Source: Caenorhabditis elegans (taxonomy: Eukaryota; Nematoda; Chromadorea; Rhabditida; Rhabditidae). From it: a stretch of DNA of 64,000 nt. Where the stretch lies: positions 8,742,001 to 8,806,000 of the forward strand of contig NC_003283.11 of the NCBI RefSeq assembly GCF_000002985.6. Direction: 5' to 3'. A program made the position numbers and the translations under genes. Under the pieces are notes generated by a model. It was not told where the DNA came from, did no database searches, and was given only the letters and a program-made list of their open reading frames with translations. Of this stretch, positions 1 through 26,918 are shown one piece after another. Numbering within the stretch: position 1 is the stretch's first letter; each line of letters starts with the position of its first letter.

Positions 1-187
1 ATTTTCATTTGAAAGAAAAGTAAAGTTGTTGCGTGGTTTGTTTTTAACTTTGAACGCCCAAGTTTTTTTACCGAATTTAAAATTTTAAGGTTTTTTATTG
101 AAAAAAAATCAATTTTCAATTTTGTATTCGAATAGAAACTTTAAAATTATTCAAGGGCCAGACCACCAAAAACATGCATTATTACAG

Positions 188-259
188 AGAGAATCAGACG
201 AATTGAGAACTATGGAGGAACAACTTGGCATAACGGAAAGAATCTTCTGGGCGAATTGA
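188..259 (+). CDS. Possible terminal exon of an upstream gene
   Basis: A tattacag acceptor at 180-187 opens a 24-codon frame ending in TGA at 257-259, encoding a charged, helical-looking tail (RESDELRTMEEQLG...FWAN). An AATAAA polyadenylation signal lies at 294-299, the right distance downstream. This looks like the last exon of a plus-strand gene that begins left of the window. It is too short for family assignment, although its Glu/Arg-rich character resembles the coiled-coil genes that follow. It could be chance. Confidence 0.4.
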   Translation, partial: RESDELRTMEEQLGITERIFWAN

Positions 260-803
260 TAAGAAATTACTGTTTTTTTTATTTACAAATTTTAATAAAA
301 TTTAGAACTTTTTGGAAGATTATAACAATTTAAACAATTGCCTTTTACATTTTCTCATATCAGGTGTAGATGACAACCGCATAAATGTTGGACAATGTGG
401 TAAGATTTTCGCGGGACTTTACGAGGACTTATAAATAGAACACACCTGTTAATTTGATTGTATTTAACTGTAGATTCTGATTTTTGGTATTGTACATATG
501 ATAGTTCTACCGTTTTGTTTGTTTTCCAGTGAATATTTGTTGCAGATAGAAGATAAACTTTCATTATTCATAGTTTAGACATAAGACATAAACCCCTCCC
601 AAATTTAATGAAAGTGTGAGATGATTGATTTTTCTTTCGGTATTTCTCACATTTTCAATAAATTCTTTCTCATACCTATTTCATGTACACAAACTCTTAT
701 CGAAAACACAATTTAGACGTAGCAATACATTTCACTGTTCTCTATCTCTCTTCAGTCACTAACTTCATTAGTTTCACTGCAAAACAAAAAGTATTCCAGA
801 AAA
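260..803. other. Intergenic; holds promoter copy A of a duplication
   Basis: No convincing gene. From about 611 the sequence closely matches 3966 onward, so this stretch contains the presumed 5' flank of the left duplicate gene, including a CT-rich tract (ctctatctctcttcag) near 740-755. The short minus-strand open frame at 355-564 has no splice context or recognisable motif and is disregarded. Confidence 0.5.
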
Positions 804-2165
804 ATGGTCCAATATTTTTGTTTTGATGCAGAAATGATTTCTTGTTTTAATGAATGCACTGAAACTGTAAGTTTTCAATATATTGTTTCATATTCTAAGT
901 ATCTAATAATTTCAGGGCTACTTTGATGAATTTCTAACAAAATATGACGCTTCTATAATAGAACTTGGTGATCAACTGAAATATGTTTATTTTCCAGCAG
1001 TAAGTAAATACATAAATGGCTAATCTATATTTCAGTTAAAGAGCACTGCCTGTAAACACTATTGTACGAATTTCAAGAAATTTTTCAATTACTTCCTACA
1101 CTCACTATCAGTGGTCAACAACTTTTCTCTAAACATGATGCCGGGATTGAAAATGAGAAGACTATTGTTTCTTTTCTAAACGATTTGAGACATGCAATTG
1201 ATTCAAAAGTTAGTCTATATTGATTTCTTAAGTTAGATAACAAGATTATGCTTCAGAACTGGGATGTTTTTTATTTCAAATACCGAGATGTTGCTGATTT
1301 GATAATAAAAAAAGCAAGACAACAAGGAAGAGTGGATGTTCAAATTGTTTCTAACAACGGAAAAGTGTTGGCGAATGTGAGTTTTCAAAAATAAAATATA
1401 TCATTAATGTGTCACTTTACAGTTGAAAGACAGGGATATTCATAGTTTCAAAAGAAGAGTATAAGCAAAAGCACATGAATTCGGTTAGTTCATAGTTTAT
1501 TTGTAAAATGGGAGGTTTGTAGTGAGATCCCATAAAAAGAACAGATTTATCAACGTTCATTGTTTTGTAATTCAGTGTGAAAATTTTGCAGTAAAATGTT
1601 GACTTGTGGGAGATTGAGAGGAATCAGAAAAACACTGAAGTTCTATTTTATTCTAGCCGATAAGTCAAACAAGAAATAATGGTCCTATTTTTAAAAAACG
1701 CCCACCCATAAGAGTCATAAAGCATCAAAGTGAATTAGCAAACATCGACTCTCCTCAATTACGGTAATTCTAATTTACTTTGGAGACAGATAACGGATAT
1801 CTACTCATTCAGAACCCCGGATCGAATTAAAAACGGAAACACTCCATCTGCAACAAATTCAGCGACCTCATCACAAAAAGATTATCTAAAAACTTCCATT
1901 CCTTCTGCGAACGTTACGTCTACTGAAAAGACAGAATTTGGATCAGCCAAAAGCAGTGTACCCCGAGTGACCTGCAATTCAACTAAATTGGAAACTGCTC
2001 AAGCGACTCATGAAAATATTGTATTGGATCCTAAGAAGAGCTCTCAAAATACATTACGATCAGATAGTTATCCTGATACCGAAAAGAAGAGAATCTTGCC
2101 AAGGAATACTTCAAATTCACATCACGAAATCTGTAATGATGTATTATCACATCAAGAAAAACACG
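611..2165 (+). repeat. Tandem duplication, left copy
   Basis: This segment aligns almost continuously with about 3966-6395, allowing for an 850-bp element inserted in the right copy. Similarity starts in the 5' flank, covers seven exons and their introns, and stops abruptly within exon 7. Introns are nearly as similar as exons, which points to a recent segmental duplication rather than coding constraint. Confidence 0.85.
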
Positions 2166-3045
2166 AAGAAGAAGGAAATAATGAGCCAAAAACTGTTAAT
2201 GAACCCATTGAAAAAGTAAACGAGAAATGGAATTCAAATGACACTGAAAAAATAGATGAAATTATTGAAAATCTTACGATTTCGATTGATGCAATGAAAA
2301 TGAATATATCACAAGAAATGGTAAGGAGATTAAAAAACATACACTACGTTTAATCAATTTGTTTTTAGGAAAAAAATAAGGTAAATAAATCAGAAATGAA
2401 TAATTTCGAAATAGAAATGATATCTTCAATGAGCGAGTTAAAACAAAATATGGACAATAAAATGCAAGAAATGATGCAACTTATGAAAAATTTTGTTCAG
2501 TACGTTTGTGAAAACATAATACTACAATTTTAGTAATTTTTCAGATCAGGAAAATCAGAAAATAGTATGAAGACAAATGCAATCTCGGAAAACACGATAA
2601 ATGATGTCCACCAAGAGCAGCCCGATGACAAGTTTGATCCATTTTAGAAAGAATATTTTGAGCTATAGTTGCAGACATTTCAGAAATTCAACTTCAACAT
2701 TTGAAAACGGTGAAACCAGCGATGATATCAGCGCCGTCGATTTTGAATTAGTTCAGAACATTCCACAGCAAGATCAATTAAATGTAAAAATTAAAAATTA
2801 GTTGCCTATTTCTTTCGTAAATTATTTTTAGATTACAAATGAAAACGATGACGATTCAGAATCAAGCATTTTTTATTCAATTGGCAGAACAAAATCGATT
2901 GTTTAGTTTCGTCTTGATCAAGTAAGAAATGACCGTGAAAATATGAACGTGAGTACATCAAGATGCTTCCTATAATCGACTATAATTCATTCAGCGTGAG
3001 GCAGAAAAAGAAATACAAGAGAGGCTGCGAAGAATTCGTAAATAA
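804..3045 (+). pseudogene. Decayed duplicate of the adjacent group 3 gene
   Basis: The start at 804 and exons 804-866, 916-999, about 1060-1210, 1256-1378 and onward match the intact gene at 4162-8177 exon for exon. The copy is broken. In exon 3 the frame shifts by one base between about 1085 and 1130, since the downstream homologous frame (QLFSKHDAGIENEK) is out of register. In exon 5 an extra T near 1449 turns the conserved SSKEEYKQ reading into a quick stop (FKRRV). Farther on, an in-frame TAG stands at about 2643-2645 and another follows at about 2907. The 3' half (after about 2165) does not resemble the sister gene; it encodes hydrophilic, Glu/Lys-rich sequence ending at 3045 with AATAAA at 3094-3099. 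What the sequence shows is multiple independent lesions. That it is non-functional is inference. Sequencing error or unannotated micro-exons are the alternatives. Confidence 0.7.
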
Positions 3046-3965
3046 CTTAATTTAGCGTGTTGTCGAAACGTTCACAAGTGTTTTAAATCATAAAATAAAA
3101 GTTGTAAATAAAAACGTTTTTTTGTATTCTTTATATTGCCTCACTTTTTTTTACAATGACGCAAACTTTAGTCTTCTATAGGCGAGTATTCATTGTACTC
3201 TTCACTTTGTGACAGCGCTGTGAGAAAGTTTAAAAATATAAATTTTCAAACAAAAAAAGCGGGAAATTTCGTTACGACTTCAGACAGCCGTGAACATCTT
3301 TTTTGGTGTATTTCGTTTACTGTGAAATTTTTTCCTAATCAAGACGTCACGGAGGCGGGTTTTCAATTCCCATTCCCTTGCCTTTCTTAACCCTGCTTGT
3401 GCTTAATTTGTCTTCACGTTGTTCACACGTAACTAAACACCTACTATATACATATATTTTTCTTTCTCAGTTTATTTCCATCATTACACATTTCGTGGTG
3501 TTTTAGAAAGGCAGAAGGGAGAAAAGACATCGAAAGGTGGAGCATGAATAAAAAACCATTTGACTGTAACATTGAAAAATGTGATCCAAAAATGTGAAGG
3601 AAAAATTTTACAATTATGATTCAAAGATATGCACATCTTTAACAACTGAATCATAAATTCCTTGACGGTGTTATATTTTTCCGTGTGATGATTGTTGTGA
3701 GGTGTCGTCCAACTACTTGTGAATAATATATTTGTTCGTTTGCCCATTGGTTTTTAATTGTGTCCCAAGCTCTATTTTTTTGCCAGCAAAACTTGCGAAA
3801 GTTCATACCCTTTAATTTATCTTTTATGTAAAGGTCGCGGAGTCGCTTCAACAAAATAAATATTAATTCCTATTTTTATGATATTTCACAACCTCTGTCA
3901 ATGATACTTAAACACTTTTTTGAACATTCCAACTTTTTATTAGACACAGTTTTTCACAACTGATA
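3046..3965. other. Intergenic between duplicates
   Basis: About 900 bp with no supported gene. Two overlapping minus-strand open frames (3484-3747 and 3651-3854) encode Lys/Arg/Trp-containing peptides that could be a relic of a mobile-element protein, but there is no start, splice structure or family motif I can defend. I see no terminal repeats here. Confidence 0.4.
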
Positions 3966-6395
3966 AAAGTGTGAGATATTTTATTATATTTTTCTTTCAG
4001 TATTCCTCACATTTTCAATAAATTCTTCCTCATACCTATTTCATGTACACAAACTCTTATCGAAAACACAATTTAGACGTAGCAATACATTTCACTGTTC
4101 TCTATCTCTCTTCAGTCACTAACTTCATGTTTGATTGCAAAACAAAAAGGATTTCAGAAAAATGGTCCTATATTTTTATGTTGATGCAGAAATGATTTCT
4201 TGTTTCAATGAATCCACTGAAATTGTAAGTTTCCCATACATTGTTTTGATTTGAATATTGCATTATTTGCAGGGCAATTTTGATGAATTTCTTACAAAAT
4301 ATAACACTTCTTTGATGGAACTCGGTGATCAACTAAAATATGTATTTTTTCCAGCAGTAAGTGAATACATACATACATATATGACTTATATAATATATAA
4401 TCACATTAAAGAGCACTGCCTGTAAGCACTACTGTACATACTTCAATCAATTTTTAAAGTGCTTTCCTGTTCGCAATCGTCAACGCTTGCTTTCTGAACG
4501 GGATGTTGGTTTTGAAAACGAGAAAGTTGTGTTTCTTTTTCAATCCGATTTCAGACATGCAATTGATATGAAAGTGAGTTTATATTTTTTTAATACGCTC
4601 GGCAATTCGGTGCCCCTTTCAAACCAACTATACCCACTTCTCAACCAACTTTGGCCACTTTTCAACTGCCATTCACAGAAGTGGGCAAAGTTGGTGAAAG
4701 TTGGTTAAATCTGAAAATTTTTTCACGCTGCCACACCATTTCTGTGAGCCGCCGCGCCTTGGAAGGATAACATCTGCCTCTTACAGGATTTGAACTTCCC
4801 TGCTTTCTATCGTTGGATTCGTATTCTATTGTCTTATCTGCGTAGCCATACCGCGCACGCGAAGCTTTGCAATAGTTTCAAAATAAGTAATGAGTAGCTC
4901 ATGCGCGTAGTTTTTTGCCTGATTAACGATTTCGTGACATGGAAAGCATTTCAAGTATTTTGGGTTTTTTGACAATCCGATGCCTAGGTATTTCTTGAAA
5001 TGTCGTAGGAACTGTTTCCTCTCTAAATTTTTTTAGTTGGAAAATGTGGCAAAAGTTGTATGGTATGTTATAGTGGGTCATAGAGATTATAATAAAAATA
5101 AAATAAGTGTTTTCTATATCAAACGTATCTAAAATGCTTGTTTTTGGCTAGGCTATTCTGAATATCTCTGAAACATTGAAAACAAGTGAACGCACGTTGG
5201 CTAAAGTTGGCCAAAGTTTGCTATACTTGGTTGAGAAGTGGCTAAAGTTGGCTGAAGATGGCCAAAATTGGCTAAAGATGGCCAGAGATGGCGAAACTGG
5301 GTTGCAAATTGACTGGTCGCTCAAAAGTGGTTGAAAAATGAGCAAAGTTGGTTAAGAAGTGGCCAAACATGGTTTGAAAGTGGTGGGAGGCTGAAGTTGG
5401 TTGAGAAGTGGGGAAAGTTGGTTTAAAAGTGGCGCCGAATTGCCGAGACGATAACAAGATGATTTTTCAGAACTGGAATAATTTTTATTTCAAATACCGA
5501 GATATTGCTGATTTGGTGATAACAAAAGCAAGAAAACAAGGGAAAGTTGATGTTCAAATTGTTTCTAACAACGGAAAAGTGTTTCCGAATGTGAGTTTTT
5601 AAAAATAAAAATAAATAATTAATGTATCACTTTACAGTTCAAAGAAAGGGATATTCATAGTTCAAAAGAAGAGTATAAGCAAAAGCACATGAATTCGGTT
5701 AGTTCATAGTTTATTTGTAAAATGTGAGGTTTGTAGTGAGATCCCATAAAAAGAACAGATTTTTCAACGTTTATTATTTAGTGAATCAGTGTAAAAATAT
5801 GGTAGTAAAATGTATGAAGTTGAGGTGTGGGAGGCATTGAGAAAACTGGGAAAAACACAAAAGACAAAACTTATTCCAGCCCATAAGCCAATCAAAAAAT
5901 CAGGGCACTATGTTGAAGAATCGCCCACCCAGATTAGTCAGAACTCATCAAAGTGACTTGGCAAACATCGACACTTCTCATTCACGGTAATTTAAATTTA
6001 CTTCAAAGACAGAAAACGGATATCTTCCTTTTCTCAGAAACCCGGCTGAAACCAAGAACGAAAACACTTCATCTCGCACAAATTCAGCGACTTCATCACG
6101 AAAAGATTATCTAAACACTTCCATTCCTTCTGCGAACGTTACGTGTACTGAAAAATACAGAAGTTCAGAATTTGGATCAGCCAAAAGCAGTGTACCCCGA
6201 GTGACCTGCAATTCAACTAAATTGGAAACTGCTCAAGCGACTCATGAAAATATTGTATTGGATCCTAAGAAGTGCACTCAAAATACATTACGATCAGATA
6301 GTTATCAAGATACCGAAAAGAAGATAATCTTGCCAAGGAATACTTCAAATTCCCATCACGAAATCTGTAATGATGTACAATCATATCCAGGAAAA
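3966..6395 (+). repeat. Tandem duplication, right copy
   Basis: Counterpart of 611-2165. The 130 bp at 4001-4128 are nearly identical to 641-772, upstream of the start codon. The right copy is longer because a terminal-inverted-repeat element occupies 4598-5447 in intron 3; the left copy has the uninterrupted site around 1215-1250. Confidence 0.85.
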
Positions 6396-8177
6396 CATTA
6401 TGACAAAAACACATCTAGTAATTTTGTTTTCAATTTTGAAATCGATGAGCATCCCGTTCCAATTACACCTACTTCACCGAAGCAAAACTATGAAAAAACA
6501 TACAAAGACGGAGATAGTAATCAAACAGTGAGTGTCATTTCCTGCGAAGTTGGATTATATTATCCTTTAAATCCATAACTTAGCTAGAAATTTGTATGAC
6601 CACCATCGTACATATATTAAAACGTCACAGTTTGCACTCCGAATACGTGAAATTGAACGTTTTTACTTTTAGGGTGGCATTTGCGAAATTGAGCATTCAG
6701 AAAACGTTGTTGAATCGTTCGAGGTTTTGGAGAACAATAAGAAAACTGAATATTTTTTTAATGTGATCAATGAATTGCGATGTGACTTACAACCAGAAGA
6801 TGTTCCTTGTTATAGATCAAGTAAGTGCTACGAAACCGAATGTTTTATTTTTTCATAGAGACTAATTTTATAAATAAACACCTGTGTAGATGTTGTATAA
6901 ATTTGTTTTATTTTAGGATCTAAAGAACATATTACAAATGGAATGGCAGATTTCAAGAATGATATGTATAGTTTGAAGCGAGAAACTGAGGTTGGTAATC
7001 TGAACACATTGCAAATAAAATTAAATTGAAAAAAATTTTCTCAAGTCAAACTTAAGTGAATTCATGGATACTTACAATTCGGACTTTAAAAATTTTACAA
7101 TAATGGGAACAGTTAGAATTTTGGCAGTTTATTGTATAAGCATACATCCTACTTTAGATATTATGGAATATGAAATAACTTCCTATTGAAGTTTATTTTT
7201 GTAGGAGAGGGTCGAAGATGTTGAAAAAAGTGAACAACAAATTCGTATAAATGGAAAAGGACGTTTATCATCAATACAACATGATACTGAAGAAATTGAT
7301 GATAGTACCTTTAAGAAAAAGCTTCAAGAGCAGAGTGAGCGCAACAAAATTGAGTTAGAAAAGAAGAAACAAGAAAGAATGAACAAGAAACGAAAATTCG
7401 AAGATGAGATCAGAAAATTGAAAAATGAATTGATAGAACGATTCAATATGATAATGAGTTGCATTGCACTCAAACGCAAGTTCGATATTCAAGAGGATTA
7501 TTGGAAGGATTGGATTCATGGATGCAGGTAAAGATTTACCTTAAATAATTATTAATACCTTGTTGTCAGGCAAAATATCAGTAAACTTCTAAATCATTGT
7601 CATCAATTTGTGTATGATGTTAACAGTCACAGCTACGGATTACGAGAGAGTAAAAACGTGGATTTTAACGAGCTCGAGGTTTTTAACACTTGCGCCCATT
7701 CAACTCAATACAGTTTTTATTTCAGCTGGAAATAACGAATCTTCTTGGGTTTACAATGATGACATACAACGCAATGGAAGACAGTTTTGCAAAGCTCAAA
7801 GAGCTTGAGCGCATGTTTCCAGACGCCTCATTTGTTCGAGTATTTCAGGTAGAACATTTGAAATTTTCCTAGTTAGAAAATAAGATTTCAAGTATAGTGC
7901 TGGCTTATCCTTCATCTTTCAGAAATGCATTGCTGACACTGCAAAAATCATATTGGAAATTTATGATTCTTTCGGCGTACTTTCACTCAACCCAAATGAA
8001 AGCAACTATCAAATCCTCCAAGACAAGCTGCAATTTTTACAACCTTCAACGATTCACTCTACTTCAGATTTGCACAGAATTTGCAACGAACATGAGTTCT
8101 CCCCAGTTTATCAAAACATTGAATTTCCCTCAATCTCCAATAGCTCGCCTGTATATGTTTCTGAGATTTCAGAATAA
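4162..8177 (+). CDS. Nematode-specific hydrophilic/coiled-coil protein, group 3
   Basis: Thirteen exons join in phase: 4162-4224, 4273-4356, 4412-4573, 5471-5590, 5638-5697, 5880-5986, 6038-6527, 6673-6820, 6917-6990, 7205-7527, 7570-7678, 7726-7848 and 7923-8177, giving about 705 residues. I do not recognise the family. The N-terminal third is compact and Cys-containing (STACKHYCTYF). The middle (about 190-360) is Ser/Thr/Asn-rich and probably disordered. Exon 10 is a long Lys/Glu-rich segment (KKKLQEQSERNKIELEKKKQ) likely to form a coiled coil. The C-terminal exons, with FVRVFQ and a DLHRIC motif near the end, align with the last two exons of 11695-13759. There is no signal peptide or membrane segment. 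Exon 3 uses a poor acceptor (attaaag) where the left duplicate has ttcag. Intron 3 carries an 850-bp inserted element. This is the only group 3 member that reads through intact. Confidence 0.75.
4598..5447. mobile_element. 850-bp non-autonomous DNA element with terminal inverted repeats
   Basis: The left end begins CTCGGCAATTCGGTGCC and the right end is its complement, with the similarity running for some 50 bp (ctttcaaaccaact...cttctcaaccaac). A 3-bp direct repeat, acg, flanks it at 4595-4597 and 5448-5450. The homologous intron at about 1215-1250 lacks it, so the insertion postdates or accompanied divergence of the duplicates. The right third is made of degenerate copies of a ttggctaaagttggcc-like word on alternating strands. 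There is no transposase frame, so it must rely on an enzyme supplied elsewhere. A shorter relative lies at 9055-9388. Confidence 0.8.
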
Positions 8178-9883: not shown

Positions 9884-11066
9884 ATGGGCGAACTATTCGG
9901 AAAACCGAGTAGTGAGCAGGGTTGTCAATTTTTAATGCATAATATATTTTCTATGTTAAAAAGTTTTGATGCAAGTCTTGGGATAAAACTCCAACCATGC
10001 AGATTAAAGAATTGCGCTGAAACTTATAAATCGTGTTGATAAGTGTTTTTAAGGCAAATCCAAAAAAAGTCACAACGGAAGAGGTATTAAAAGCCGAGTC
10101 TGATCCACTGGAAGCCGAAAAAATTATTGATGAGTTAGTGTACATTAAATTTACTTTTATTGCAGCATCTTATTTCAGTTTCGAATCTCAAAAACGTTCG
10201 GAACAATTTGTCGAAATACAGAACATAGTTTGCAATCAGATTCAGGACTGCAAAAGAGAAGATCGGGAAAATAAAAAAAAGAGTGATGAATTGGTAATCT
10301 GAGTCTCCATTCAATCAACTAATTCTTCTTGTTTAGGACATTGCTCAAATTTCTCAGGATAAGACGGAAGCTATTGATTTTGTGGCATCACAACTTTTAC
10401 TTCAAAGTGGTGCAAAAGATCACAGCAATGCTCGTCAGATTAATGATGTGATTTCAAAGATCAACGAGTTTGCAACAAATCTTGACAATCATTTTGGCAA
10501 AGCTTACAAAGTGGTAAGTTTTTTTGGCAGTTCACGACTTAATCGGTTGCTTTTTAGAATGACTCCGGGAGAGGAATTTATCGATACTTCGCTCAAAAAT
10601 AAGATGTACACTTCATCACAACTAACTCAAGTTTCAGAAGTTCTCAATCAAATCATTTAAGCGATCAATAATTTAGACCGATCTTTAACCCAGTTCCAAT
10701 TAAAAAGTTTGGAAACAACTGTAAGCTTAGAATTATTTCATAGTTTGTTTTTATTGTGTCCATATTTCAGAAAAAAATCGTGAAATCAAAACTCAAATAT
10801 CAACACTAACGCCGTTTATTGCCACTTTCAAAAGGATTCTCGGAAATGAAAACTCTGAAATTGATTCGAAAAAAGTTGAACAGTTTTCGAACGAAAAAAC
10901 AAAGTTGTTTGAAACGGTGTGTAGATTTATATCTATCTTCAAATTATATCCTCTTTTTCAGATCAACAATTTGGAATACGTGAATGAAAATCGTGACAAG
11001 CTTGTAAATGCAATTCAAAATACCACAAAAGACCCAAAACTAGAAAATCTTCGAATTGAAAACTAA
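9884..11066 (+). pseudogene. Broken group 2 coiled-coil gene
   Basis: ATG at 9884 directly follows a ttgcag acceptor. Plausible exons are 9884 to about 10028, about 10050-10137, 10182-10293, 10337-10513, about 10559-10720, 10772-10917 and 10963-11066. Parts are clearly related to the minus-strand genes 18687-20936 and 22959-24038: the segment FKRILGNENSEID and the closing INNLEYVNENRDKL match FKRILNSENQEID and INNLQPIAENRRV there. The exons cannot be joined in one frame. A TGA follows KNCAETYKSC unless a base is skipped, exon 10559-10720 has a stop in every usable frame, and its phase does not fit the next exon. I call it a pseudogene, but an unusual splice pattern could rescue part of it. 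Confidence 0.6.
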
Positions 11067-11694: not shown

Positions 11695-13759
11695 ATGTTT
11701 CCTAGTGAATTATTACCAGTGTTTGTTATCTTTTTCTTGCCTGAGCTAGAAAAAACGTCAATTTTTGCAACTCTGTTTTTGCAACTGTTAGAGTCATTAT
11801 ATTACCAGTTCAATGAATTTGTTCAAACGGATTCAAACATTCTTTACATCTTCAAAAAAAATCCTACTGACCGATTTGTAAGTTTTCGTTTTTAACACAA
11901 AATTTAATCTTGAGCCCTTTTTTCAGGATACGAATTTCATTTTTTACTGGTTTTGGATACAATTTGAAACATTGTTAAATGCGAGATACTATGATCTTTC
12001 CCAAAAAATCAACGAAATTTTCAATCCATCTTTTCCAAAAAATTATGAAGAAGTGAGAGAATATTCACGTAAAATATGATTGATTCTATTCAAAATTTAA
12101 CAGAAATCCAATCAGTTAAAAGACGAGATATTTCCAATATTCCTTGATTTTTTCAATTTTTTAGAAATGGAGAATCATGCCACCATAACAAAAGACAAGT
12201 CCAGCAATGATGTAAGTGGTATATAAAAGCACCCAGGAAGCTCAATTGAATTATTTCAGAAATATCAAATTATTAACATTCCATTGAAATGCCCAATCAG
12301 TTTCATTAAAAATGATGTGAGTTGAAATAGGTGTTTTGTTAACTTTTCATTTTGATTTTTTTTAAAATATGCTTTTCCTTTTCCTTACAGTATAAATATA
12401 ACAAAATTTATATTTTGTTGTGGCAAACGAAATTGATGATCAACCCATTGAAAAAGGCATTGACGCGTTGAGTACACTGAATTCAAGTATTTGTGTCAGG
12501 GAAGAAACTCAGGATTTTACTTTTTTATCTGATACTAGAGTCGGATTAGAGAAACCCAAAACTGATATAAAATCGGCAGAGATAAATGATTTTTCTCGCG
12601 AGTATATTGCGAAAGTTGAAAACGAAGTAGCAGAGATTTCTAACTCTGCAATTGTAAGAAGACTTTTGGTTTTGTATTAATATTAAGTTCTTTATTGTTT
12701 AGGCAGCGATTGAGGAGTGCCGTCAAATTGAGCAAGAGGACGTCACACAAAAATACAGCAATTGCGCTTCGGACACAGAATCGGATTATGATGATAAGGA
12801 AGTTTTCGAAGCAAAATTAAAAGAACAAGAGAGACAAAACACGGAAGAATTGAGAGAAAAAATAGCACAGTAAAGTGTCGTAAAGTGAGATTTGAGATTT
12901 TTGTAATTTTTTTGAGAATTTCTAGAAAGAAAGGGACTTGAATGTAATATATCAGGAAAATTGCAGAATATGTTTGCTGAGGAAATCAAAGAACTTAAAA
13001 GACTCCACAAATTGAAACTTGCGGCATTTTTCGATTGCATTCGGTTGAAATATCGATTTGAAGAAAAAGCACACGAATGGTCCGATTGGATTGAAAACCA
13101 TCTTAGACAAATGATTATTAGAGTGCAAACAAAATTTATTGATTTTGAAACTATGGTACGGTTGTCAATGGCCTAATTATATTTTGAAATTTCAGGCAAA
13201 AAATTTCAAATATTTCAAATCAGTTTCGGAAGAAATGATGCCTGAAATAAATTCTGAAATATTTAATCTAAATGAAGAAATCACGATCTTGCTCAACAAT
13301 TTTTCTACCATTTTCAACAACTTTGAAATTATGTATATCGACCATCCAGAAGGACTTTTTATTCGCGTTATTCAAGTTAGTTTTTTTCAAAATTGGGATT
13401 CCTTTTTTATTGTGTTGATAATTTTTGTTTGTTTCCATTAACGATCAGTAAACAATATTGATTTACAATACTTTACTTCTATTTTTCAGAAAAGCTTGTG
13501 CATGATAGCTGTAAAACTCCTGGAAATCCGGAATTCTTTAGACAAAGCTGACATGTCAAATGACTGGTATGAAGAGACAAGGGCGCTTTTCTCAAACATC
13601 AAAATAAGTGACATTCCAACGGTTTCCCAATTGAGAAAAATTTGTAAAAATGAGAGTCATTCTGACTACGAAGAATTGAAATTTCCGGAGGTTTTGAGAG
13701 TAGCTACTGTAGTGATTGAAGAAGTTTCAAACAACAGTAAAGAATCAGAAGAATTATAG
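11695..13759 (+). pseudogene. Group 3 coiled-coil gene, probably frameshifted
   Basis: Exons read well locally: 11695-11878, about 11928-12052, 12103-12209, 12260-12316, about 12390-12654, 12703-12870, about 12965-13154, 13196-13375 and 13490-13759. The ends of the last two exons (FIRVIQ then KSLCMIAVKLLEIRNSLDKA) align with FVRVFQ and KCIADTAKIILEIYDSFG of the 4162-8177 gene, so they are paralogues. The Lys/Glu-rich part (KLKEQERQNTEELREK) is a likely coiled coil. Two junctions fail. After the strong ttacag acceptor near 12389 the first bases contain TAA in the frame required downstream. At about 12870 the exon runs into TAA and no donor gives the phase needed by the exon that follows. Either the gene is decayed by at least two small indels, or it is two shorter genes whose structure I cannot see. 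Confidence 0.55.
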
Positions 13760-13896: not shown

Positions 13897-14968
13897 TCAT
13901 AAATTGTCGTATCCTGGAGGTTTTTCAATAGCTCGATGAGAATTTTTTGACACTATTGTAAGATCCATTTGACGAGAAAGTGTCTCTTGTATATAATCAC
14001 GCTCAGCCACATCAAACTGCAAAAACTGTCTTTATTACAACATAAGTTTGGTTTTGTGCACCTTTTGAATAAGCTCACTTAACTGTTTCATCCTATCATC
14101 AACATAAATAAACTCTGATCCGATCCCTTGTTCAGTGGCAGTACAACCTTCTTCTTCAAACATTTCAAGCGTTGATATCAGTTCACTCATTTCTGTTCTT
14201 AATTCCTCAACGGTTCCGATAACTTCTCCAATTAGTTGTGTAAAAACTTGAACATCCGTTGATCCATCTGCATTGAATTCAGTAGCATGTTGGTAGAAAA
14301 CTCTCAAAGCGCTCAATAAATCGTCCATTTCAGTATCTAAGAGCGCTTCTCCTATCCTCATTCGCCTATGATTTTCTATAACCTGAAAACAAAATAGAAG
14401 TGTAAAATAAAATCGCTCAATTGCAATTTCAAGTCTTACAATTGGTTCTGTTGCACTGTATACAATAGATAACACTTTGTGAGCATCTCTCAATGTTTTG
14501 CATTGTCGTTTGAATTGTTCGGACCTATCTTCAATTGCCAGACTCTCATCAACTGAGCAGTGTTGAAGGCTGAACTTATTACATTTTTAGTATCGTTAAA
14601 CAGAACTCACTTGAAACAAAACAAGTGTCATCTTGCTTCTCTAATTGATTTTTTTGATCTTCAAATCTATCTTCATTGATGTGTCCAAGACGATTCTCTC
14701 CATCGAGGATTGTGTGATGAAGTTCTTGATTCAAATTGAGAATTTTTTGATTTTTATCCGCATATTTTGACAGCCCATTTGCCAGTTCGAGTTTGTGCTC
14801 AGTTTCATCCGTTATTTTTCGCAGTTTATTTATTTTATTTTTAAGATCTTTATCCATCTGACGTATGATGAATTTGTTTGGATCCTGTTTTTCTAACTTT
14901 TTTTTTTCTTGGCTATTCTTTTCTAATACAGTATTTTCGTTTGAGATGAAATGACTTTCTTGAATATT
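13897..14968 (-). pseudogene. Group 1 coiled-coil gene with one-base deletion
   Basis: Read on the minus strand, exons are 14968 to about 14618 (Lys/Glu-rich coiled coil), about 14580-14456, about 14397-14060 and 14019-13897, ending in TGA. The core block (EMDDLLSALRVFYQHATEFN) and tail (KPPGYDNL) match the intact gene at 17016-18491 (DMEDLLSDLRMF; GPPAYETT). Near 14545 the alignment NTAQLM versus NSAQLM is followed by a one-base deletion relative to the paralogue, which throws DESLAIED out of register, and no splice option restores it. The first exon has a good acceptor but no start upstream, so the 5' end is also missing or unseen. The C-terminus carries a PPGY (PPxY-type) motif. Function unknown. 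Confidence 0.6.
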
Positions 14969-15488: not shown

Positions 15489-16708
15489 TTAAATAATGAA
15501 TTTGAACTGAACTGATTTTTAATTAATTAAAATAAGTTTCTTCGAGCTTCTCTTACTTTTTTGATTAGATCACTCATCTCTGTCATGTAGTCATTTACCA
15601 GAATTAGTTCTTTCACTACTTCATGTTCTATATCACCATTGGAATCACTTTCATTCTCCATTCTTGATTGAATGCTGATCAACTCAGTTTTTATATTTTC
15701 AGTTATCGGTAATATTTGATTAACAAGACTGATAAATTCAGCGTCATTTCCAGATCCTTCTGCATTAAATTCTGTGTTATAATACGAAAAAACACGGAGG
15801 GAGCTCAATAAATCGTCCATATCTATCTCAGATTGGTTTCTCATTTTTACAGCTTGGAGAATCTGGAAGAAGCTAATGTTTTCATAAAGAGATTTAAAAC
15901 TGAAGCTTTGCCTAATTTGAAAGTATAAAAACAAACCAGTGTTTCTGAAATGTTGAATTCACATTCAAATAGTTTGTATTTGCTGCATAAAATGTTGCAT
16001 TGCTGCTTGAATAGGTTGAATTGATCATCTAACGACTGCTTGGCTCTCAACTTTGCAAGATTTGCAACTGCAACAAAATTAATTACTATAAGATTTCAAG
16101 AAATCTCCTTACTTCCGTTCAATATAGCTGTTTCAGTATTTTTCAGTTTCTCTTTTTGAGAATCATTTTGTTGTTTTTCCAACATTTGAAATTGAAGTTC
16201 TCCTTCAATTTCTGTTTTATCTAGGTTTCGTTTCAATTCCAAATATTCTTCATTGATTTCCTTTTGTTGCTTCAACTTTTCAGCGTTATTTTTATTTTTG
16301 ATTTGTCTGAAAATAATAATACAATTTTTCATACAGCTTTATTTGTTCATAAATCTTGAACTAAATGCTTATATCTAGATTATTCTCAGTTTTATCGATA
16401 AGTCTACAAAGGCGGAATATTTGTTCTATTCCAATTCTTAAACTTGTTTTTTATGAGAAATAATTGGACATTAACTAACTAATGGAATTTTCCAATTAGT
16501 GTCGGAAATGTAAAAAAATGTATTTAAATACACCTTATGCGTTAGGTTTTTTCAAGTAACCAAATATGTATAATAAAAACTGTCAAAAAGTTTCGATGAA
16601 CTCTAAAAGATTAAAATTACTTATTTTGACTTTAATTAGTTATTTTTCATCCCCAAATTAATATACTCACTGGTCACATGCGTCCGGCTTACAGGCAGGG
16701 AATGACAT
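15489..16708 (-). CDS. Group 1 coiled-coil protein, short-tailed
   Basis: Five exons on the minus strand join in phase: 16708-16671, 16306-16113, 16067-15937, 15862-15557 and 15506-15489, giving about 228 residues. Residues about 14-75 are Lys/Glu/Gln-rich and likely coiled coil. The fourth exon has the group block DMDDLLSSLRVFSYYNTEFN followed by acidic helices. Exon order, phases and the GGA-A|gtaag junction after exon 2 are identical to the gene at 17016-18491. That gene and 13897-14968 end in a roughly 40-50-residue tail containing PPxY. Here the last exon is only FKFII before the stop, or the frame reads through the donor to stop at 15527, so the tail is lost. No signal peptide or membrane helix. 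I do not recognise the family; paralogy to its neighbours is clear, function is not. Confidence 0.7.
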
Positions 16709-17015: not shown

Positions 17016-18491
17016 TTAGTTTTCGGTGATTGCTGCTGGCTTAACCTTCTTTGTGGTTTCATAGGCGGGTGGTCCTTCAAGAGCGTTACGTCCATTTCTA
17101 GTAGAATGAGCAATTCTCATTTGATCAGCCAATGTCTCTTGAATGTGGTCACGGCTGATGACGTTGAACTGAAACGTATTTGTTGTGAAAATATTTGTGA
17201 AAGGAAAATGTGATTACCAGCTGGATTTTGATACTGATTTCTTTCATTTTGTCACTAATGGCGATCATTTCTTTCAAAATCCCATTTTGATCAGTGACAA
17301 GTGGCTCCTCTTCGAAAACGCCAATCTTTGAATCAATTGTATTGATTTCAGTAGTCAATTCTCCAATTATTGCAATGACGTCAGCAATATGCCCAGTGAA
17401 TCTCTCTTCATCAGTAGATCCACCTGCATTAAATTCAGAAGCACAAATTCTGAACATTCTGAGATCACTCAAAAGATCTTCCATATCAAAGTCTATAAGC
17501 GGTCTTCCAGCTTTCATACGATTGTCAATATTCATAAGCTGAAAGAAAATCTTTGATAAGTTGTACTAGTACATTATGTTCCAACAATTCAAAATACAAA
17601 ACAAACCTGTGCTTCAATAGAATTGTATGAATTGCAAAAGGCTCTGTGGCGGTTGATAAGATTTCTGCAATGTTGACGAAATTGTTCGAAGTTATCCTCA
17701 ATTGCTAGACTTGTCATCAACTGTGCCGAATTAGCAACTGAATATCAATTTTTGGATTAACTAAATTTTAAAAACAAAGTTCTTACTTCCTGAGAAGGCC
17801 CTATTCTCTATCTTCTCCAATCGCTTCTTCTGTTCCTCAATTCGTTTTTCATCCATTTTTTGAAGTTTTTCTTCTTGGTTTATCTTGATTTCGTGAATCC
17901 CTTGATTCAATTTCAAAACTTCTTCATTAAACTTCTTTTGTTCCGCGTTCCTTTCTTCTCTGATTTTGTTGCACATTTCTTGCCGAATCTTTTCCCCGTT
18001 CTTAATGATTTCTGCCGAATCATTCAGTTGCTGACGACGAATTTGAAGTTTTTCTTCAAGTTCTTTTTGTAGCTTCTCAAGCTCAAATTTTCTCTTCTCA
18101 ACTTCCATTTTGTTTGAATCATTTCGAACATTCAACTTCTCTCTGGTAATAGCATTGAGGCGTTCTTGCAATGCTTCCATTTCTTCGATTTGTCTGAAAA
18201 TGTCCCATTTTGAAAAATAAATTATGGTCGAAAATGATTGAAACATACTTTGCTCTTTGGTTCAAGATTTCCTTTTTCTTTTCCTCCGCACCTTTCTTCA
18301 ATTTTTCTCTCGTCTCGTCTAATTCTCTTTCATGGGCAGCATGCAGACCGGCAGATTTTTGTTGAACTTGCTAAATAATGTTTCAAATTATGTATGAAAA
18401 TTGTATCCATGCTCACTCTATTTATTTTGTCGCGTTCTTCTTTCAACTCATTTTCTCTGGCAACTTTTCGTTCCTCATATTTTGAAGACAT
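17016..18491 (-). CDS. Group 1 coiled-coil protein with PPxY tail (intact)
   Basis: Six exons join without any phase conflict: 18491-18417, 18370-18249, 18193-17787, 17737-17607, 17538-17218 and 17168-17016, for about 402 residues. The start MSSKYEERK is the only ATG preceding a consensus donor. Residues 1-200 are almost continuous Lys/Glu/Gln/Arg heptads, a long predicted coiled coil. Then comes the group core (SLAIEDNFEQFRQHC, DMEDLLSDLRMF, an acidic helix) and a tail DHIQETLADQM...GPPAYETT, where PPAY fits the PPxY consensus bound by WW domains. It is cytosolic or cytoskeletal by composition, with no signal peptide. This is the best reference model for group 1. I cannot name the family. 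Nematode intermediate-filament or kinetochore proteins have similar composition but no diagnostic motif is present. Confidence 0.8.
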
Positions 18492-18686
18492 GGTGCAATG
18501 GATGCAGAAATGGCCTGAATTAAAGTATTAATAAGATACAAAATATATAAATAAACAAAATAGGAGGCAGATAAAGTATTGGCTTAAAACCAACTGTAAA
18601 ATAATGAAAATGAAAGGCAAACATTAAAGGAAAATATTTTTAAAGAATAATGACATGGCTTTAAAAAAAACATTAGATTAATAAAA

Positions 18687-20936
18687 TTAATTTTTGATTT
18701 CCAGTTTCTGGCTAACATCGGAAATCGCTTCGATTGGCATCGACACGTTATGTCTTTGTTGGATACTCTCAGTAATTACACGACGGTTTTCGGCAATTGG
18801 TTGAAGATTATTAATCTAAAAGTGAAACTTTTTACTCATAACCCTTTTGAAGAGTTGAAATTTTAGGAAATTGCCGATATGGCCACCACATCGGACGGGT
18901 TTTGTGAACTTACGATATTAAAGAGATCATCTTTCAAGTCACTAAAACGTTTGTTGTTCTCTTCTTCAATTGCAATCTTGAGCTCAAGATTACGTCTCAA
19001 GCCAGCAATGACTGGTTGAAAATCCGAAACCTTAGATTTGATCTTCCGGAGCTCATCCTGAAAGATGTTCCATTTAGTTGTCTCATTTTGATAACATATT
19101 TTCTACTCACACTCATTGAAACATCTTCCAACTCCAAAAATGCTAAGTTTTGTTCAATTGCCCCAACTTTGTCGTTAATGGCACGAAGGCATTCGGAAAG
19201 GCGAGTGACATATTGTTTGGTTGACCTTATTTGTCTTTCGCTTAACCTTGCGAAATGGTCTTCAGTTGCTCCAAGCTGAAAATTAAGATTATGAACTTTA
19301 TTAATAGCCTTGAAAAAATAAGGAAAAATGAGTTGTTTAATATATATATCCAAATATATATATATATATATATATATCCATATTTCTCCTAGGTTTGTTG
19401 GCTGCCAACTCTTTTAACATCTTCATTAACGAAGTCAAAGTGTAACATTTATTTAACTCACCACAACAGCTGCTCTACCGAAGAATCCATCAAAATCTGC
19501 CATCGGCCCATTTTTCAGCTCTGCCATTTTGCCGTTAACTTGTCTTCGATTCTTTTGGTCGTCAACACATCGCTGAATAGCCAGATCTTGCATTCCCATT
19601 GACTGCACGTCAACCAAATCACTTCGAATATCATTAATTGCCTAGAAAGTTAATTTGAAATATAGTTTCCAAACAGACATGACTTACCATAACTTGGTTT
19701 TCCTTGCGTTCCTCTCGCTCACTCGACGCTGCTTCTCTTTGTGCTTCGTGAATTTCATTTCTCTTATCCATTAAAACTTCTGTTTTTTTCTGAGCCAAAA
19801 GTCTACAAATTAAAATTTAAAAATTAGAAAAATAACAAACATTACACTTACTCTTCCATATCTTTTTTGTTATCAACTTCGTCAAAGATTTGTCTTCCCA
19901 CTTCAGATTCCATAATCATGCTTCTAGCTTTTCCTTCAGCAATTTCCTTATCCAAGTGCAGATTTTTCTAAACTTAAATTAATGTCATAGGTAGTAACAG
20001 ATTAATGCAGCAAGTTATCTTTCCTTACTAGAAAAAATGTTATTTGATTTTTTAACACTTCTTAATATACCGTATTTCTTCTATTTGTAAGACATGCAAT
20101 ATTCATTTTTGGACCTACTTAGATGCAATACTATTAGAGTGTGCAATACTAATTTTCGAGCACATTTTTGTGATATTTTCCATCAAGTAATAACACAATT
20201 TCATCAATTTCAACAACAAAAATCGGATCAAAGTAGCGAATTTTACGTCTGATACGCAAAAATGACCGAGTTGTTTTCATATCTTAAAAATGTTGGCTTG
20301 TTATAGCAATTCTGTAAAAGTTTTCCTGAGAACGATTTTCTATTGCAAACTTTGAAATCTCTAAAAAATAGAACAAAAATAAAATGTTGCAAAGTAATAG
20401 ACGTGCCAAATAATTAGACGCGCGTTACAAATAAAGGAATAATGGTAAGTAACATTTTCCATCTTAAAATATTGAATGTGTACAAAACTAACCTCGTTGA
20501 ACTTAGACGTAGCGTCTTCAAAATGGTTCAGTGCAATTGATGTTAAAACATCAATTTTCTTCGAATTTTGTTCAACCTCAATTTGTGCATTTCTTATGCT
20601 TTCCTCCTTTTTTTGTTCGTGTTCAGCTTGTTCTTTTAGTATTCTTTGGTCAACTTCTTTAAAAAAAAATGGTTCAGAAAGAATATTAATGAATTAAATT
20701 CTATTTACCCACCTTTCTTAAATCGATCCGCTTCATCTGCGAGCATTTTCATGTTTCTCAGGTGCTGATGATCACTACGAGAGAGTTCTTGTTGTAACCG
20801 TGTGGGACCACTATCTTGTATTTCTCTAAACATGTTCAAAACGTTCTTGTAAAATTGTTATTGCAACATACCGAATTGCATCCTGGTGTTTTACTTCGTC
20901 GCGTGCGTTTTGCTCGTCGCGCTGAGCTGTGGACAT
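18687..20936 (-). CDS. Group 2 coiled-coil protein (intact)
   Basis: Nine minus-strand exons join in phase, giving about 395 residues: start MSTAQRDEQNARDEV at 20936, second exon about 20827-20711, third about 20658-20493, then about 19975-19856, 19803-19689, 19642-19463, 19275-19111, 19059-18915 and 18815-18687. Nearly the whole protein is charged and helical, rich in Glu, Lys, Arg and Gln. Useful landmarks are RSDLVDVQSMGMQDLAIQR, GRAAVVLGATEDHFARL and INNLQPIAENRRV. These align with RNDLSQVMKMGMVNLSMQ, QRAISVLGAPPGY and VNCLHLISEKRG in 22959-24038. Intron 3 is about 520 bp, unusually long for this cluster. An AT microsatellite sits in intron 6. No signal peptide or transmembrane segment. 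Function unknown; a structural or scaffold role is only an inference from the coiled coil. Confidence 0.8.
19354..19377. repeat. TA microsatellite
   Basis: Simple (TA)n run inside an intron of the 18687-20936 gene, followed by a short tatatcca repeat edge. Likely length-variable between strains. Confidence 0.9.
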
Positions 20937-22958: not shown

Positions 22959-24038
22959 TCAAGTCCCATTGCTGATTTGGAGATTTTGAAATTGTGGCAT
23001 TGACAGATTCATTTTTTCTTCAATCAATCGGTTCATTTCTCCGCGTTTTTCGGAAATCAAATGCAAACAATTAACCTAAAAAATCAAAATTTAATTTTTA
23101 AATTCGTATCCAAAAATTTACCATTGCGAATAATCGTTTTTTCATATCCACAAATTTTTCATAATTATCTGGATCAATTTCCTGATTTTCACTGTTTAGG
23201 ATCCGTTTGAAATTCGGAATCACTTTGTTGAAATCGGATATTTGAGTTCGGATTTGGCTGATCATGCCCTGTAACTTGGGATAACGTTTTGTGTTAGCAC
23301 ACGGATTTCGAGCTTACATTCATCAAAACCTCTTTTAGTTCGTAACAAGCCAAGCTTTGCTCCAGATTAGTGACCATCGTACTAATTGAAAGAAGAACTT
23401 CTCCAAACTGGATCAAATAGTTCTTAGTTTTCGCTTTTTCTTCCTTTTTCGCAGGATAGCCTGGCGGTGCACCAAGCTGAAACGAGCAGAAAATAACTTT
23501 TTAAAAATCATATTATTCGAAACAGTTAGTGAAAACGCAGTAAGATAAAATTTTTCTAGACGTGGCAATTTTACAAATGATACTAACCACAGAAATTGCT
23601 CGCTGGAAAAACTTGTCAATTTCTTCTGTCTTCGATTTTATGTTGATAATATGCTGATTAACTTTTCTGCGGTTGTTTCTCTCTTGAGCAATAATTTGCA
23701 TTGAAAGATTCACCATTCCCATTTTCATGACTTGGCTCAAATCATTGCGAAGCTCACATAACATCTGTAAGATACACTGCTAACTTAGCAATTGTTAACA
23801 AACGAATACCTCTTCATGATCGGCGCTTGCCTCTTTTCTGATATCAATAACACTGTCCTTTTCAGCATTTTGAATTTTCAAGTAAAGCTCAAATAGATCT
23901 TCAGCATGCTGTTGAGCAATAATTCTGGAATTTCAATAATAATAGAAATTCATAATACGACCATACTGTGTAACATATTTGCACTCACTCATTGTTGTCT
24001 ATTCTGGTTTCAACATCATCAAAAATTGATGTCTCCAT
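22959..24038 (-). CDS. Group 2 coiled-coil protein, N-terminally short
   Basis: Six minus-strand exons join in phase: from METSIFDDVETRID at 24038, through about 23925-23810, 23764-23588, 23477-23319, 23267-23123 and 23075-22959, giving about 254 residues. The sequence lines up with residues about 130-395 of the 18687-20936 product, whose internal MESEVGRQIFDEVD corresponds to this start. It therefore lacks the first third of its paralogue, either through loss or because the start moved inward. Helical, charged composition throughout; APPGYP at the fourth exon start is another PPxY-like string. The C-terminal FKRILNSENQEID block is shared with the broken gene at 9884-11066. No targeting signal. 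Family not recognised. Confidence 0.75.
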
Positions 24039-26918
24039 TGCGACTGTTCGTTTGTCAAATTATTGTAGGGATAATAAACTTACAGAAATCAAATATTCAA
24101 TAAAAAACGACATGAACTTGAAAAGTGGTTCTTTCTTCCTCATATTTATTTTGTTTGTCTCATGGAGAAAGATAACGTACACTTTCAACTACAACTAGCA
24201 AGTGTTGTTGGTGTTGTTTGAAACAAAGGGAGGGAATGGCTGGGGAGTGATGAAATCCAGCATTTTGGACACTCGGCAATTCAGGTAACTGTTGGTTTCT
24301 GAAAGTTTTGGCAATTGCTCAAACCTTTGAAGACTTTACTTGAAATTAATTACTGAAAAACTCTGAATAGTTTGATTGTGAGAGACATTTTTTTTAATGT
24401 GAAATTTTTGCCACAAATTATTAAAATCTATATGCTGTATTTCCTCGAATAGTATTACAACTTATTTGTTAGCTTTGACAACACGTATCTTAGTTTTTGT
24501 TTGTTAGAAAAACTGTCAATTAGCAAAATATTTCAAACTCTTTTTCTACCATTTCTTTATTGGTTGATTTAGAAATTATTGGAAATCAAGTAAGGAGATT
24601 GCCGGTTGCCGAAAACTGTTGAAAGCTGTGCACCGCTAGGTTTTGCATTCGATAAGTTATCGTTGAACCCAGTGAAACCATGATGGTATTTTGGGAGAAT
24701 TCAGAAAACGTTTTAATGGAGTTTTTTAGATCGTAATCATGAACAGAGGTTACAACTTATTGTTTTAAAGTGCTTTGCTGAATAAATTGAGTCAATTTAA
24801 ACGGAAAACAAATCTAAAGAATATTGCACATTATACGTTGGCATGACAAGGACGCTACATTTGCAAAAAAACAGTTGAATGACTTTCACGGATCGGTTAC
24901 AGACAGTCATTTCTGGATAATTCAATTCAAGTGATTAATCGCAATGAATGTTGTATGTTTTTGCCACTGGAACGTTGACATATCAATGACGCCGGCTGAA
25001 CGTTTCTGTAATTTTCAGATTTTATCCAAATATATAATATGCACCATAATAGTAATATTTATTTGTAAAGTGTTATTCTACCAAATTCAATCAAAATTAA
25101 TCAATCGTCGATCTGTATTCCTCCTACAAATATTGGAGTATTAGTTCCTGGAAATTCAGTGTATTTATTCCACGCTATTTTAATATTGTTTCCCAATCCG
25201 ACAACATTCATCACAACAAATGGACGATTCCATTATATATTAACGGCCCAAACAGAAGTACCAACATCATCTCACCTACTGCTAATAATTTTTGAGCAGC
25301 TCACAAAAAAACAAGAGCTGAATGAAATTCGATTCATTCTAAATGCGCACTAGCTCATATTTTATGTATCAATTCCCCTGGCCCGACCTCATACATTTTT
25401 TATCGGCCGATCGTCGTCGGTTCATCTCAATTGCACACATACACTAACCAAACCTACAGCTTCACACACATACACTAACCAAACCTACACAAACAACACA
25501 ATTTAAATTATTTTTTCTTACTTTTTTTATAGAACGAGTTTGACTTTTTAGTGCTCCTCTTGAAAAACTTTCTCTTTGTTTTATAATAATTTGTGGAACA
25601 ATCAGGTAGGTGGCGTCGGTAAGGAATTATTTTGGTTCAGGATGATGAAAACAATTTGATAAGAGCATTCAAAGTATTCAATACATTCAATGTTTACCTG
25701 AAGAGTCAAGTGATAGTCATAAAGATGAACAAGTTTTTGGTGATAAGAGAATAGAGTATCAACGACAGATTCAATACATTTTGAAAGTGGAAATGATTTG
25801 AACAGAACAATAAAAATTCTAGAATTTATGAATACATATCGCGTGCGGAATAATTTCATATGTTAATTCGTTCAATTCTTTTTTATTTCAATCGCATTAT
25901 TTTCAAATCAAAAATGTTTGAATGCTCACACATCCAGCAATTGTGGAATACAAGTTAATTAAATTCTCAGTTGTGCCTATGAATGAAGTTGAAATTGTTG
26001 ACTAACTTAAAATTTTTCTCACTTTTTTCATACATCAGGATACAAAAGTTTTTAGCAAACTTTTCACAAGACACAAGACAATATCGTAACCTCAACAAAA
26101 TTTCAATCAGCTTATCGCTGAGCATGTTCACTTTTTTCTGTCTCTTTTTTAATCACCCAGAAAACTTTTGACGCGGAAAGAATATTAATGTCATCGTTTG
26201 AGAACTGAAAGGTTAACTTGATAACAACATGGTATTTCGTTTTAAACCGTTGTGTACTGGCTTTTCGAAAAAATCTGTAAAATTTAAATAATTTCTGCAC
26301 GAAAAATGATTTTTTTTTGTTTCATCTTCAACAAAGTAAAAGGAAATATTTTGAACAGCTTGAAATCCCTCACTTATATGTCTGGAGGAAAAACTTTTTT
26401 ATTTTAAGACTTTTAAATTATGTCTCATGTTTTCAATTTATGATATATTATTTAAATTTACACCATGGCGCAGAAATAAGAGGTAACTCTCCAGTTTGAA
26501 AATTTTCACTTTTTACTGCAAACAAACACAGTTTCTGTCACATTGTGTTGCTCGGTTCGATTCTGTTCCATTTACACTCTGCACCAGAGTTTCGCTGTGA
26601 TAAGAACATGATTTTGATGTTGACAGCAACGCCAATTTTTCTTATCACTAGTCAAGATTTTTAGAGCCCTGAGGCTATCTACAATCAGTTGACAACGGTC
26701 TACAACAACTGATATAGTCTTATCAGTTTCCAAATCAGTCAATCATACCCAGAGACTGCCTTAAATTTTTGTATATACCAGCATTTTATGGACACAATCA
26801 TAAGGTTTTCCGGTTCCACCTCATTTTGAATCTAGTCATACTTATTTTTTCTTTCATATTTTGTGCGCAATTTTTCACATTCTTAAATTTCAACATTTTT
26901 AATTTCAGTGGTTCAAAA
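24039..26918. other. Intergenic, about 2.9 kb
   Basis: No gene that I can defend. Near 24272 a CTCGGCAATTCAGG string resembles the tip of the inverted-repeat family found at 4598 and 9055, but no matching right end is clear. Two plus-strand frames (24944-25144, with a hydrophobic stretch, and 25159-25353) could be exons of a small membrane protein, without supporting splice sites. A short tandem repeat lies at about 25433-25497. Coding resumes after the acceptor at 26908. Confidence 0.4.
25433..25497. repeat. Two-copy 31-33-bp direct repeat
   Basis: The words cacacatacactaaccaaac and cctaca occur twice in succession, separated by gcttca. A minor minisatellite in intergenic DNA. Confidence 0.7.

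What the first reader, a model, noticed from the sequence alone, without database searches (positions are those of the whole stretch)
1..24100. A nine-member cluster of unrecognised coiled-coil genes in three related groups, half decayed
Nine genes on both strands within 24 kb share motifs within groups (FKRIL..EN..EID and NNL...ENR in group 2; MDDLLS.LR.F..Y...EFN in group 1; F.RV.Q plus a DLxxIC-like end in group 3). Five read through; four carry frameshifts or stops. I know no named family with these motifs. Such rapidly turning-over clusters often reflect conflict, germline or species-specific roles. This is the best candidate for something undescribed here.
Basis: partly seen in the sequence, partly recalled or inferred. 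Interest (0 to 1): 0.7.

Follow-up and report, generated by a model that had tools for sequence, protein, structure and literature searches.

The report
Known worm infection-response gene cluster
This stretch of the roundworm C. elegans genome holds a cluster of already catalogued genes (the B0507 genes) that worms switch on when viruses or microsporidia infect their cells; the genes are real and change fast, but they are not undiscovered, although what their proteins do is still unclear.

Summary
The nine genes are there, but they are not unrecognised. The window is C. elegans chromosome V:8,742,001-8,806,000. Group 3 (the 'F.RV.Q / DLxxIC' genes) is Pfam DUF713 (PF05218), matched at about 198 bits against a 24.5-bit cut-off; three more copies lie just left of the window. 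Group 1's 17016-18491 gene is B0507.10: published B0507.10 qPCR primers match its spliced transcript, the forward one only across an exon junction. Its neighbour at 15527-16708 fits B0507.7 by position, and 18687-20936 is by inference B0507.8. Papers rank B0507.8 and B0507.10 high among Orsay-virus-induced genes (log2 fold change about 6) and place B0507.8 in the intracellular pathogen and oomycete recognition responses. DUF713 genes are described as Caenorhabditis-specific pathogen-response genes with induced C. briggsae orthologues. Groups 1 and 2 gave no Pfam family and matched only this cluster. The groups are not detectably related to each other. I read five of nine genes as intact, two as damaged and two as uncertain. 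Most likely role: infection-induced cytosolic helical adaptors or effectors (inferred). Biochemical function remains open.

The parts
804..3050 (+). group 3, damaged: duplicate of the 5' half (upstream region included) of the 4162-8177 gene, joined to an unrelated 3' half; no DUF713 match
   Evidence: DNA 608-1221 vs 3963-4586 at 81% and 1236-2163 vs 5450-6397 at 86% identity; homologous frame broken; 3' half scanned
4162..8177 (+). group 3: hand-chosen 13-exon model in frame: N-terminal module + linker + coiled coil + DUF713
   Evidence: not returned whole by my gene finder; skips open stretch 5987-6160; DUF713 197.8 bits, E 1.8e-58
4598..5447 (.). terminal-inverted-repeat element inside an intron of the 4162-8177 gene
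   Evidence: 59-nt arms, 88% complementary
10054..11066 (+). group 2, probably damaged (frame change and in-frame stop in the homology-guided reading)
   Evidence: three frames, profile hits; a finder model of 227 aa stays open with other splices
12970..13759 (+). group 3: intact DUF713 reading frame; upstream exons about 12403-12869 did not join in frame
   Evidence: DUF713 198.3 bits, E 1.3e-58
14035..14968 (-). group 1: core exon intact; readable with an alternative acceptor; no start codon found
15527..16708 (-). group 1, intact, 232 aa, 4 exons; by position B0507.7
   Evidence: B0507.7 listed at V:8758179 = window 16179 (2009 paper, coordinate offset to this assembly unknown)
17016..18491 (-). 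group 1, intact, 402 aa, 6 exons = B0507.10
   Evidence: both published B0507.10 qPCR primers match the spliced CDS, the forward one only across an exon junction
18687..20936 (-). group 2, intact, 396 aa, 9 exons; B0507.8 by inference; 195 bp upstream of B0507.10, same strand (candidate operon)
   Evidence: acceptor-like sites before both ATGs (weights from memory)
22959..24038 (-). group 2, intact, 254 aa, 6 exons

Best explanation
This is the B0507 cluster of C. elegans chromosome V: clustered, fast-changing pathogen-response genes made of DUF713 genes (group 3) and two small local families without a Pfam model (group 1: B0507.7/B0507.10; group 2: B0507.8 and relatives). Shown by sequence or literature: identity of B0507.10 and of DUF713; induction of B0507.8/.10 by Orsay virus; B0507.8 transcripts in intestine after a heat trigger of the intracellular pathogen response (IPR), in epidermis after oomycete extract, and in both after proteasome block; DUF713 genes induced by virus and microsporidia. 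Inferred: the proteins stay in the cytosol or nucleus (no signal peptide or membrane helix by hydropathy), self-associate through helical/coiled-coil regions, and act inside infected intestinal or epidermal cells as adaptors or effectors against the pathogen or the protein damage it causes. Duplication and loss of copies then reflect changing pathogen pressure.
For: Genome of 100,286,401 bases in 7 contigs, contig 5 20,924,180 long, the size of C. elegans N2 and its chromosome V (recalled). B0507.10 primers match the gene at 17016-18491. Pfam DUF713. Literature passages: B0507.8 and B0507.10 rank first and fourth by p-value in a table of 17 uncharacterised Orsay-response genes; log2 change 6.45 and 5.8 in N2 on Orsay infection; smFISH tissue data for B0507.8; 10 DUF713 genes of which 5-9 are induced, four with induced C. 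briggsae orthologues; DUF713 the lowest-p Pfam enrichment at 8 h of N. parisii infection, 1.04e-15. No membrane or signal stretch (highest 19-residue Kyte-Doolittle mean 0.71-1.16 in 4 of 4 proteins tested) and helical periodicity beyond shuffles in much of B0507.8 and part of B0507.10.
Against: No functional experiment on any of these proteins appeared in the passages I read, so the protective role is inferred. B0507.8 is assigned to 18687-20936 by adjacency only. B0507.8 also changes on HSF-1 depletion, and B0507.8/.10 rise in lin-35 and lin-15b mutants, so induction is not infection-specific. Helical periodicity is weak in the middle of B0507.8 and in most windows of g1B and g2C, and the only finished fold prediction is low-confidence (mean pLDDT 62.9).
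Confidence: 0.7

Rival explanations
1. They are regulators rather than effectors: paralogues that switch the response on or off, as pals-22/pals-25 do.
For: pals genes are an infection-induced, expanded Caenorhabditis family with antagonistic regulatory paralogues (abstract starts of PMC6347328 and PMC10353827 in the listing; passage of PMC8748929).
Against: No B0507 mutant that alters the response appeared in the passages read; analogy only.
Confidence: 0.2
2. They are proteostasis factors: helical proteins that bind misfolded or aggregated host protein, with infection only one trigger.
For: B0507.8 is induced by proteasome block and prolonged heat and linked to HSF-1.
Against: No chaperone family among the Pfam matches.
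Confidence: 0.2
3. Mostly drifting paralogues with little fitness role, carried along by an infection-inducible chromatin domain or promoter.
For: Two of nine damaged and two uncertain; the damaged 804-3050 gene keeps a duplicated upstream region.
Against: Five intact multi-exon frames; induced C. briggsae orthologues or neighbours.
Confidence: 0.1
4. A selfish toxin-antidote element of the kind known from C. elegans (recalled).
For: Fast-evolving local genes of unknown function.
Against: Infection-linked expression in intestine and epidermis, induced C. briggsae relatives, DUF713 copies at several places on the chromosome.
Confidence: 0.02

Closest known systems
DUF713 (Pfam PF05218, InterPro IPR007883), Caenorhabditis-specific pathogen-response family
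   Same: Two group 3 genes in the window match far above the curated cut-off; membership is direct.
   Different: The 804-3050 copy keeps only the 5' half and its 3' half has no DUF713 match.
B0507.8 / B0507.10 / B0507.7, infection-response genes
   Same: B0507.10 is the same gene as 17016-18491; B0507.7 by position and B0507.8 by adjacency.
   Different: Not different; 22959-24038, 14035-14968 and the DUF713 genes are members whose published names (including which is B0507.6) I could not tie down.
pals family (ALS2CR12 signature), expanded Caenorhabditis immune gene family
   Same: Works like: expanded, infection-induced, unknown biochemistry.
   Different: No family over cut-off was found in groups 1 or 2; the ALS2CR12 signature itself was not tested.
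Human cingulin-like 1 (named as orthologue of B0507.8 in PMC4975890)
   Same: Coiled-coil character.
   Different: No family match supporting orthology; probably a coiled-coil resemblance. Not tested directly.

Membership tests
DUF713 (PF05218) | full-length profile match above the curated 24.5-bit cut-off | tested here: met
   197.8 and 198.3 bits for 4162-8177 and 12970-13759; 3 of 14 control genomes rang, 0 over the cut-off
DUF713 (PF05218) | same, for groups 1 and 2 | tested here: not met
   no DUF713 match at E up to 1 in 5 of 5 scanned (B0507.8, B0507.10, g2C, g1B, g1C; the 10054-11066 gene was not scanned); my group-3 profile hit two group-2 frames at only E 0.04 and 0.48
C. elegans infection-response (IPR) genes | identity with a named response gene | tested here: met
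   B0507.10 primers match 17016-18491; B0507.8 by adjacency only
C. elegans infection-response (IPR) genes | transcript induction by Orsay virus and microsporidia | not testable with these tools
   literature only: B0507.8/.10, virus; DUF713, virus and microsporidia
pals (ALS2CR12 signature) | IPR026674 signature | not tested
   signature model not run; only Pfam was scanned
CorA-like transporter (PF01544) | score over 27 bits and membrane helices | tested here: not met
   20.9 bits; highest 19-residue hydropathy 0.79

The most novel reading that the evidence does not exclude
Groups 1 and 2, which have no Pfam family and matched only this cluster in this genome, are two undescribed protein families that work with the neighbouring DUF713 proteins as one physically linked, co-induced defence module (B0507.8 and B0507.10 perhaps from one operon), a coiled-coil assembly that forms on intracellular pathogens.
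Probability: 0.12. Interest if true: 0.6.

Novelty: already known. Interest (0 to 1): 0.25.

Why it matters
The value is mainly clarifying: a cluster that looks undescribed from sequence alone is a published infection-response locus. What stays open is what these proteins do. B0507.8 and B0507.10 are top-ranked virus-response genes of a model animal (by p-value in one meta-analysis) and, in the passages I read, have no demonstrated biochemical function. The compact arrangement (five intact genes within 20 kb, two of them 195 bp apart) would allow one deletion to test most of the cluster at once.

Tried and rejected
Common ancestry of the three groups: hhalign between group alignments gave probabilities of 0.1% (A1/A2), 2.7% (A1/A3) and 1.2% (A2/A3). 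A profile search on held sequence gave only weak cross-hits between groups 2 and 3 (E 0.04, 0.42, 0.48). I do not claim a relation.

Relatives of groups 1 and 2 elsewhere: four protein queries of the window's own genome (B0507.8 and B0507.10 at E up to 0.1; g2C and the g1C core at E up to 10) matched only C5:8,752,779-8,766,038; the tool scores only its best candidates. In held sequence (V:8,702,001 to the window's end, plus 19 kb around two other DUF713 places, L044 and L045), profile A2 hit only the cluster and profile A1 hit the cluster plus one chance-level frame at -19728 (E 0.7); neither hit L044 or L045 at E up to 1. Solved structures by sequence: 0 matches for A1 and for A2, one doubtful match (E 0.077) for A3. 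Phage records: no match for B0507.10 at E up to 0.01. The prokaryote-genome, viral-contig and plasmid collections were not scanned.

Fold: one exon of B0507.10 folded without an alignment gave helices at mean pLDDT 62.9, pTM 0.28, too poor for a fold search, so none was run. A second job with three aligned exons was not finished at any of ten collecting calls, so it is not used.

My own gene finder uses splice weights from memory and codon counts from two genes; it over-joins neighbouring genes and breaks up 4162-8177, so the reported exon chains are hand-chosen.

CorA, DUF3819, SpoOE-like, PMC2NT, Hus1, MAS20, ApoC-I and the other non-DUF713 Pfam matches were all below their cut-offs and are taken as noise.

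Paper searches that gave nothing direct: 0 papers; listings; one of these papers, PMC8748929, read in passages, no B0507 in its text by the count.
Full report
What the window is. The window is contig 5, bases 8,742,001-8,806,000, of a genome of 100,286,401 bases in 7 contigs, with contig 5 20,924,180 bases long; I recognise these as C. elegans N2 and chromosome V (recalled). A test from the literature agrees: the RT-qPCR primers printed for B0507.10 in PMC4671695 (passage read) both match the spliced coding sequence of the gene I built at 17016-18491. The forward primer is absent from the unspliced 66 kb stretch searched and present only across an exon junction. So that gene is B0507.10. PMC2746318 (passage) lists B0507.7 at V:8758179, which falls at window 16179, inside the 15527-16708 gene; the offset between that release and this assembly is unknown, so this is a positional fit. 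The 18687-20936 gene is called B0507.8 only because it adjoins B0507.10.

Gene models. B0507.10: 402 aa, 6 exons. 18687-20936: 396 aa, 9 exons. 15527-16708: 232 aa, 4 exons, and 22959-24038: 254 aa, 6 exons. 4162-8177: 13 exons, in frame, all 12 introns GT..AG; this chain is hand-chosen, one acceptor is unusual, it skips an open stretch at 5987-6160, and my gene finder returned the region only in pieces. I count these five as intact. Of the other four, 804-3050 is a duplicate of the first half of 4162-8177 (81% and 86% DNA identity over two blocks, upstream region included), its homologous frame is broken, and its 3' half has no DUF713 match. 10054-11066 needs a frame change and crosses a stop in the homology-guided reading, though a finder model with other splices stays open. 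14035-14968 reads through if another acceptor is used, but I found no start. 12970-13759 has an intact DUF713 frame whose upstream exons did not join. So of nine, five are intact, two damaged and two uncertain; whether the last four are expressed cannot be told from sequence.

Families. Group 3 is Pfam DUF713: 197.8 and 198.3 bits against a 24.5 cut-off. A search of this genome gave 26 matches, 23 over the cut-off, which I group into nine places, all on contig 5: five in this cluster (three left of the window at 8,732,004-8,738,344) and four near 13.448, 15.712, 15.717 and 20.392 Mb; 3 of 14 control genomes rang, none over the cut-off. PMC5392922 (passages) counts 10 DUF713 genes and calls them specific to Caenorhabditis. 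Groups 1 and 2 had no Pfam family over cut-off (5 of 6 members scanned). The groups are not detectably related to each other, with only faint cross-hits between groups 2 and 3.

What is known. All papers were seen as passages. PMC6416287: B0507.8 and B0507.10 rank first and fourth by p-value of 17 uncharacterised Orsay-response genes. PMC11778786: log2 changes of 6.45 and 5.8 in N2 on Orsay infection, and induction in lin-35 and lin-15b mutants. PMC10957088: B0507.8 transcripts in epidermis after oomycete extract, in intestine after prolonged heat (the trigger used for the IPR), and in both after bortezomib. PMC13039024 treats B0507.7 and B0507.8 as IPR components. PMC11195985: DUF713 genes such as B0507.6 and C. 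[quoted passage not shown] PMC5392922: 5-9 of 10 DUF713 genes induced, four with induced C. briggsae orthologues. PMC4063957: DUF713 the lowest-p Pfam enrichment 8 h after N. parisii infection. PMC9762603: some related DUF713 genes induced in both species by Nematocida. PMC4975890 calls B0507.8 an orthologue of human cingulin-like 1 and lists it among genes changed by HSF-1 depletion. Text searches for B0507 names found 12 papers and 1, already among them; I read passages of eight of the 12, and none demonstrated a biochemical function.

How it probably works. Four intact proteins (B0507.8, B0507.10, g1B at 15527-16708, g2C at 22959-24038) have no hydrophobic stretch long enough for a membrane helix or signal peptide, so they are probably cytosolic or nuclear. 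Much of B0507.8 and part of B0507.10 have helical periodicity beyond shuffles; most windows of g1B and g2C do not. The one finished fold prediction is helical but poor. B0507.8 and B0507.10 lie 195 bp apart on one strand, each with an acceptor-like site before its ATG (scores 6.6 and 5.1; 22959-24038 has none, -0.5; weights from memory), and are induced to similar degrees, which suggests but does not show co-transcription. My preferred reading is infection-induced, self-associating helical adaptors or effectors in intestinal and epidermal cells. The identity is near certain (about 0.95); the mechanism is inferred (about 0.35). Regulators of the response and proteostasis factors are live rivals.

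Verdict. Already known; interest low to moderate because the proteins' function is still open.

Noticed in passing
window 4598-5447 and 9053-9390: Two different elements with terminal inverted repeats (59 nt at 88% and 47 nt at 94%), whose left arms share CTCGGCAATTCG; the first sits in an intron of the DUF713 gene.
   Followed up: partly
L023 (V:8702001-8712000), 1-961 and 3478-7903: Long tandem arrays with periods divisible by three (60 bp x16; 114 bp, about 10 and 29 copies in adjoining arrays); the first reads as a 20-residue repeat protein.
   Followed up: no
V:8739653-8741010 (window -2347 to -990): Two pairs of inverted repeats, 215 bp at 98% and 240 bp at 95% identity, just left of the window.
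   Followed up: no
window 2157-2925: The 3' half of the damaged 804-3050 gene gives a match to PMC2NT just under the cut-off (22.4 vs 23.3 bits; query had two mistyped letters); probably coiled-coil noise.
   Followed up: no
window about 27-38 kb and 52-53.5 kb: Right flank: a BRO1-domain gene (112 bits) and a PDZ-domain gene (35 bits), from rough, over-joined gene models.
   Followed up: partly
window about 9890-10040: A short relic that by eye resembles the N-terminal module of the DUF713 genes lies just upstream of the group-2 gene at 10054 (frames), so pieces of groups 2 and 3 may be interleaved.
   Followed up: no
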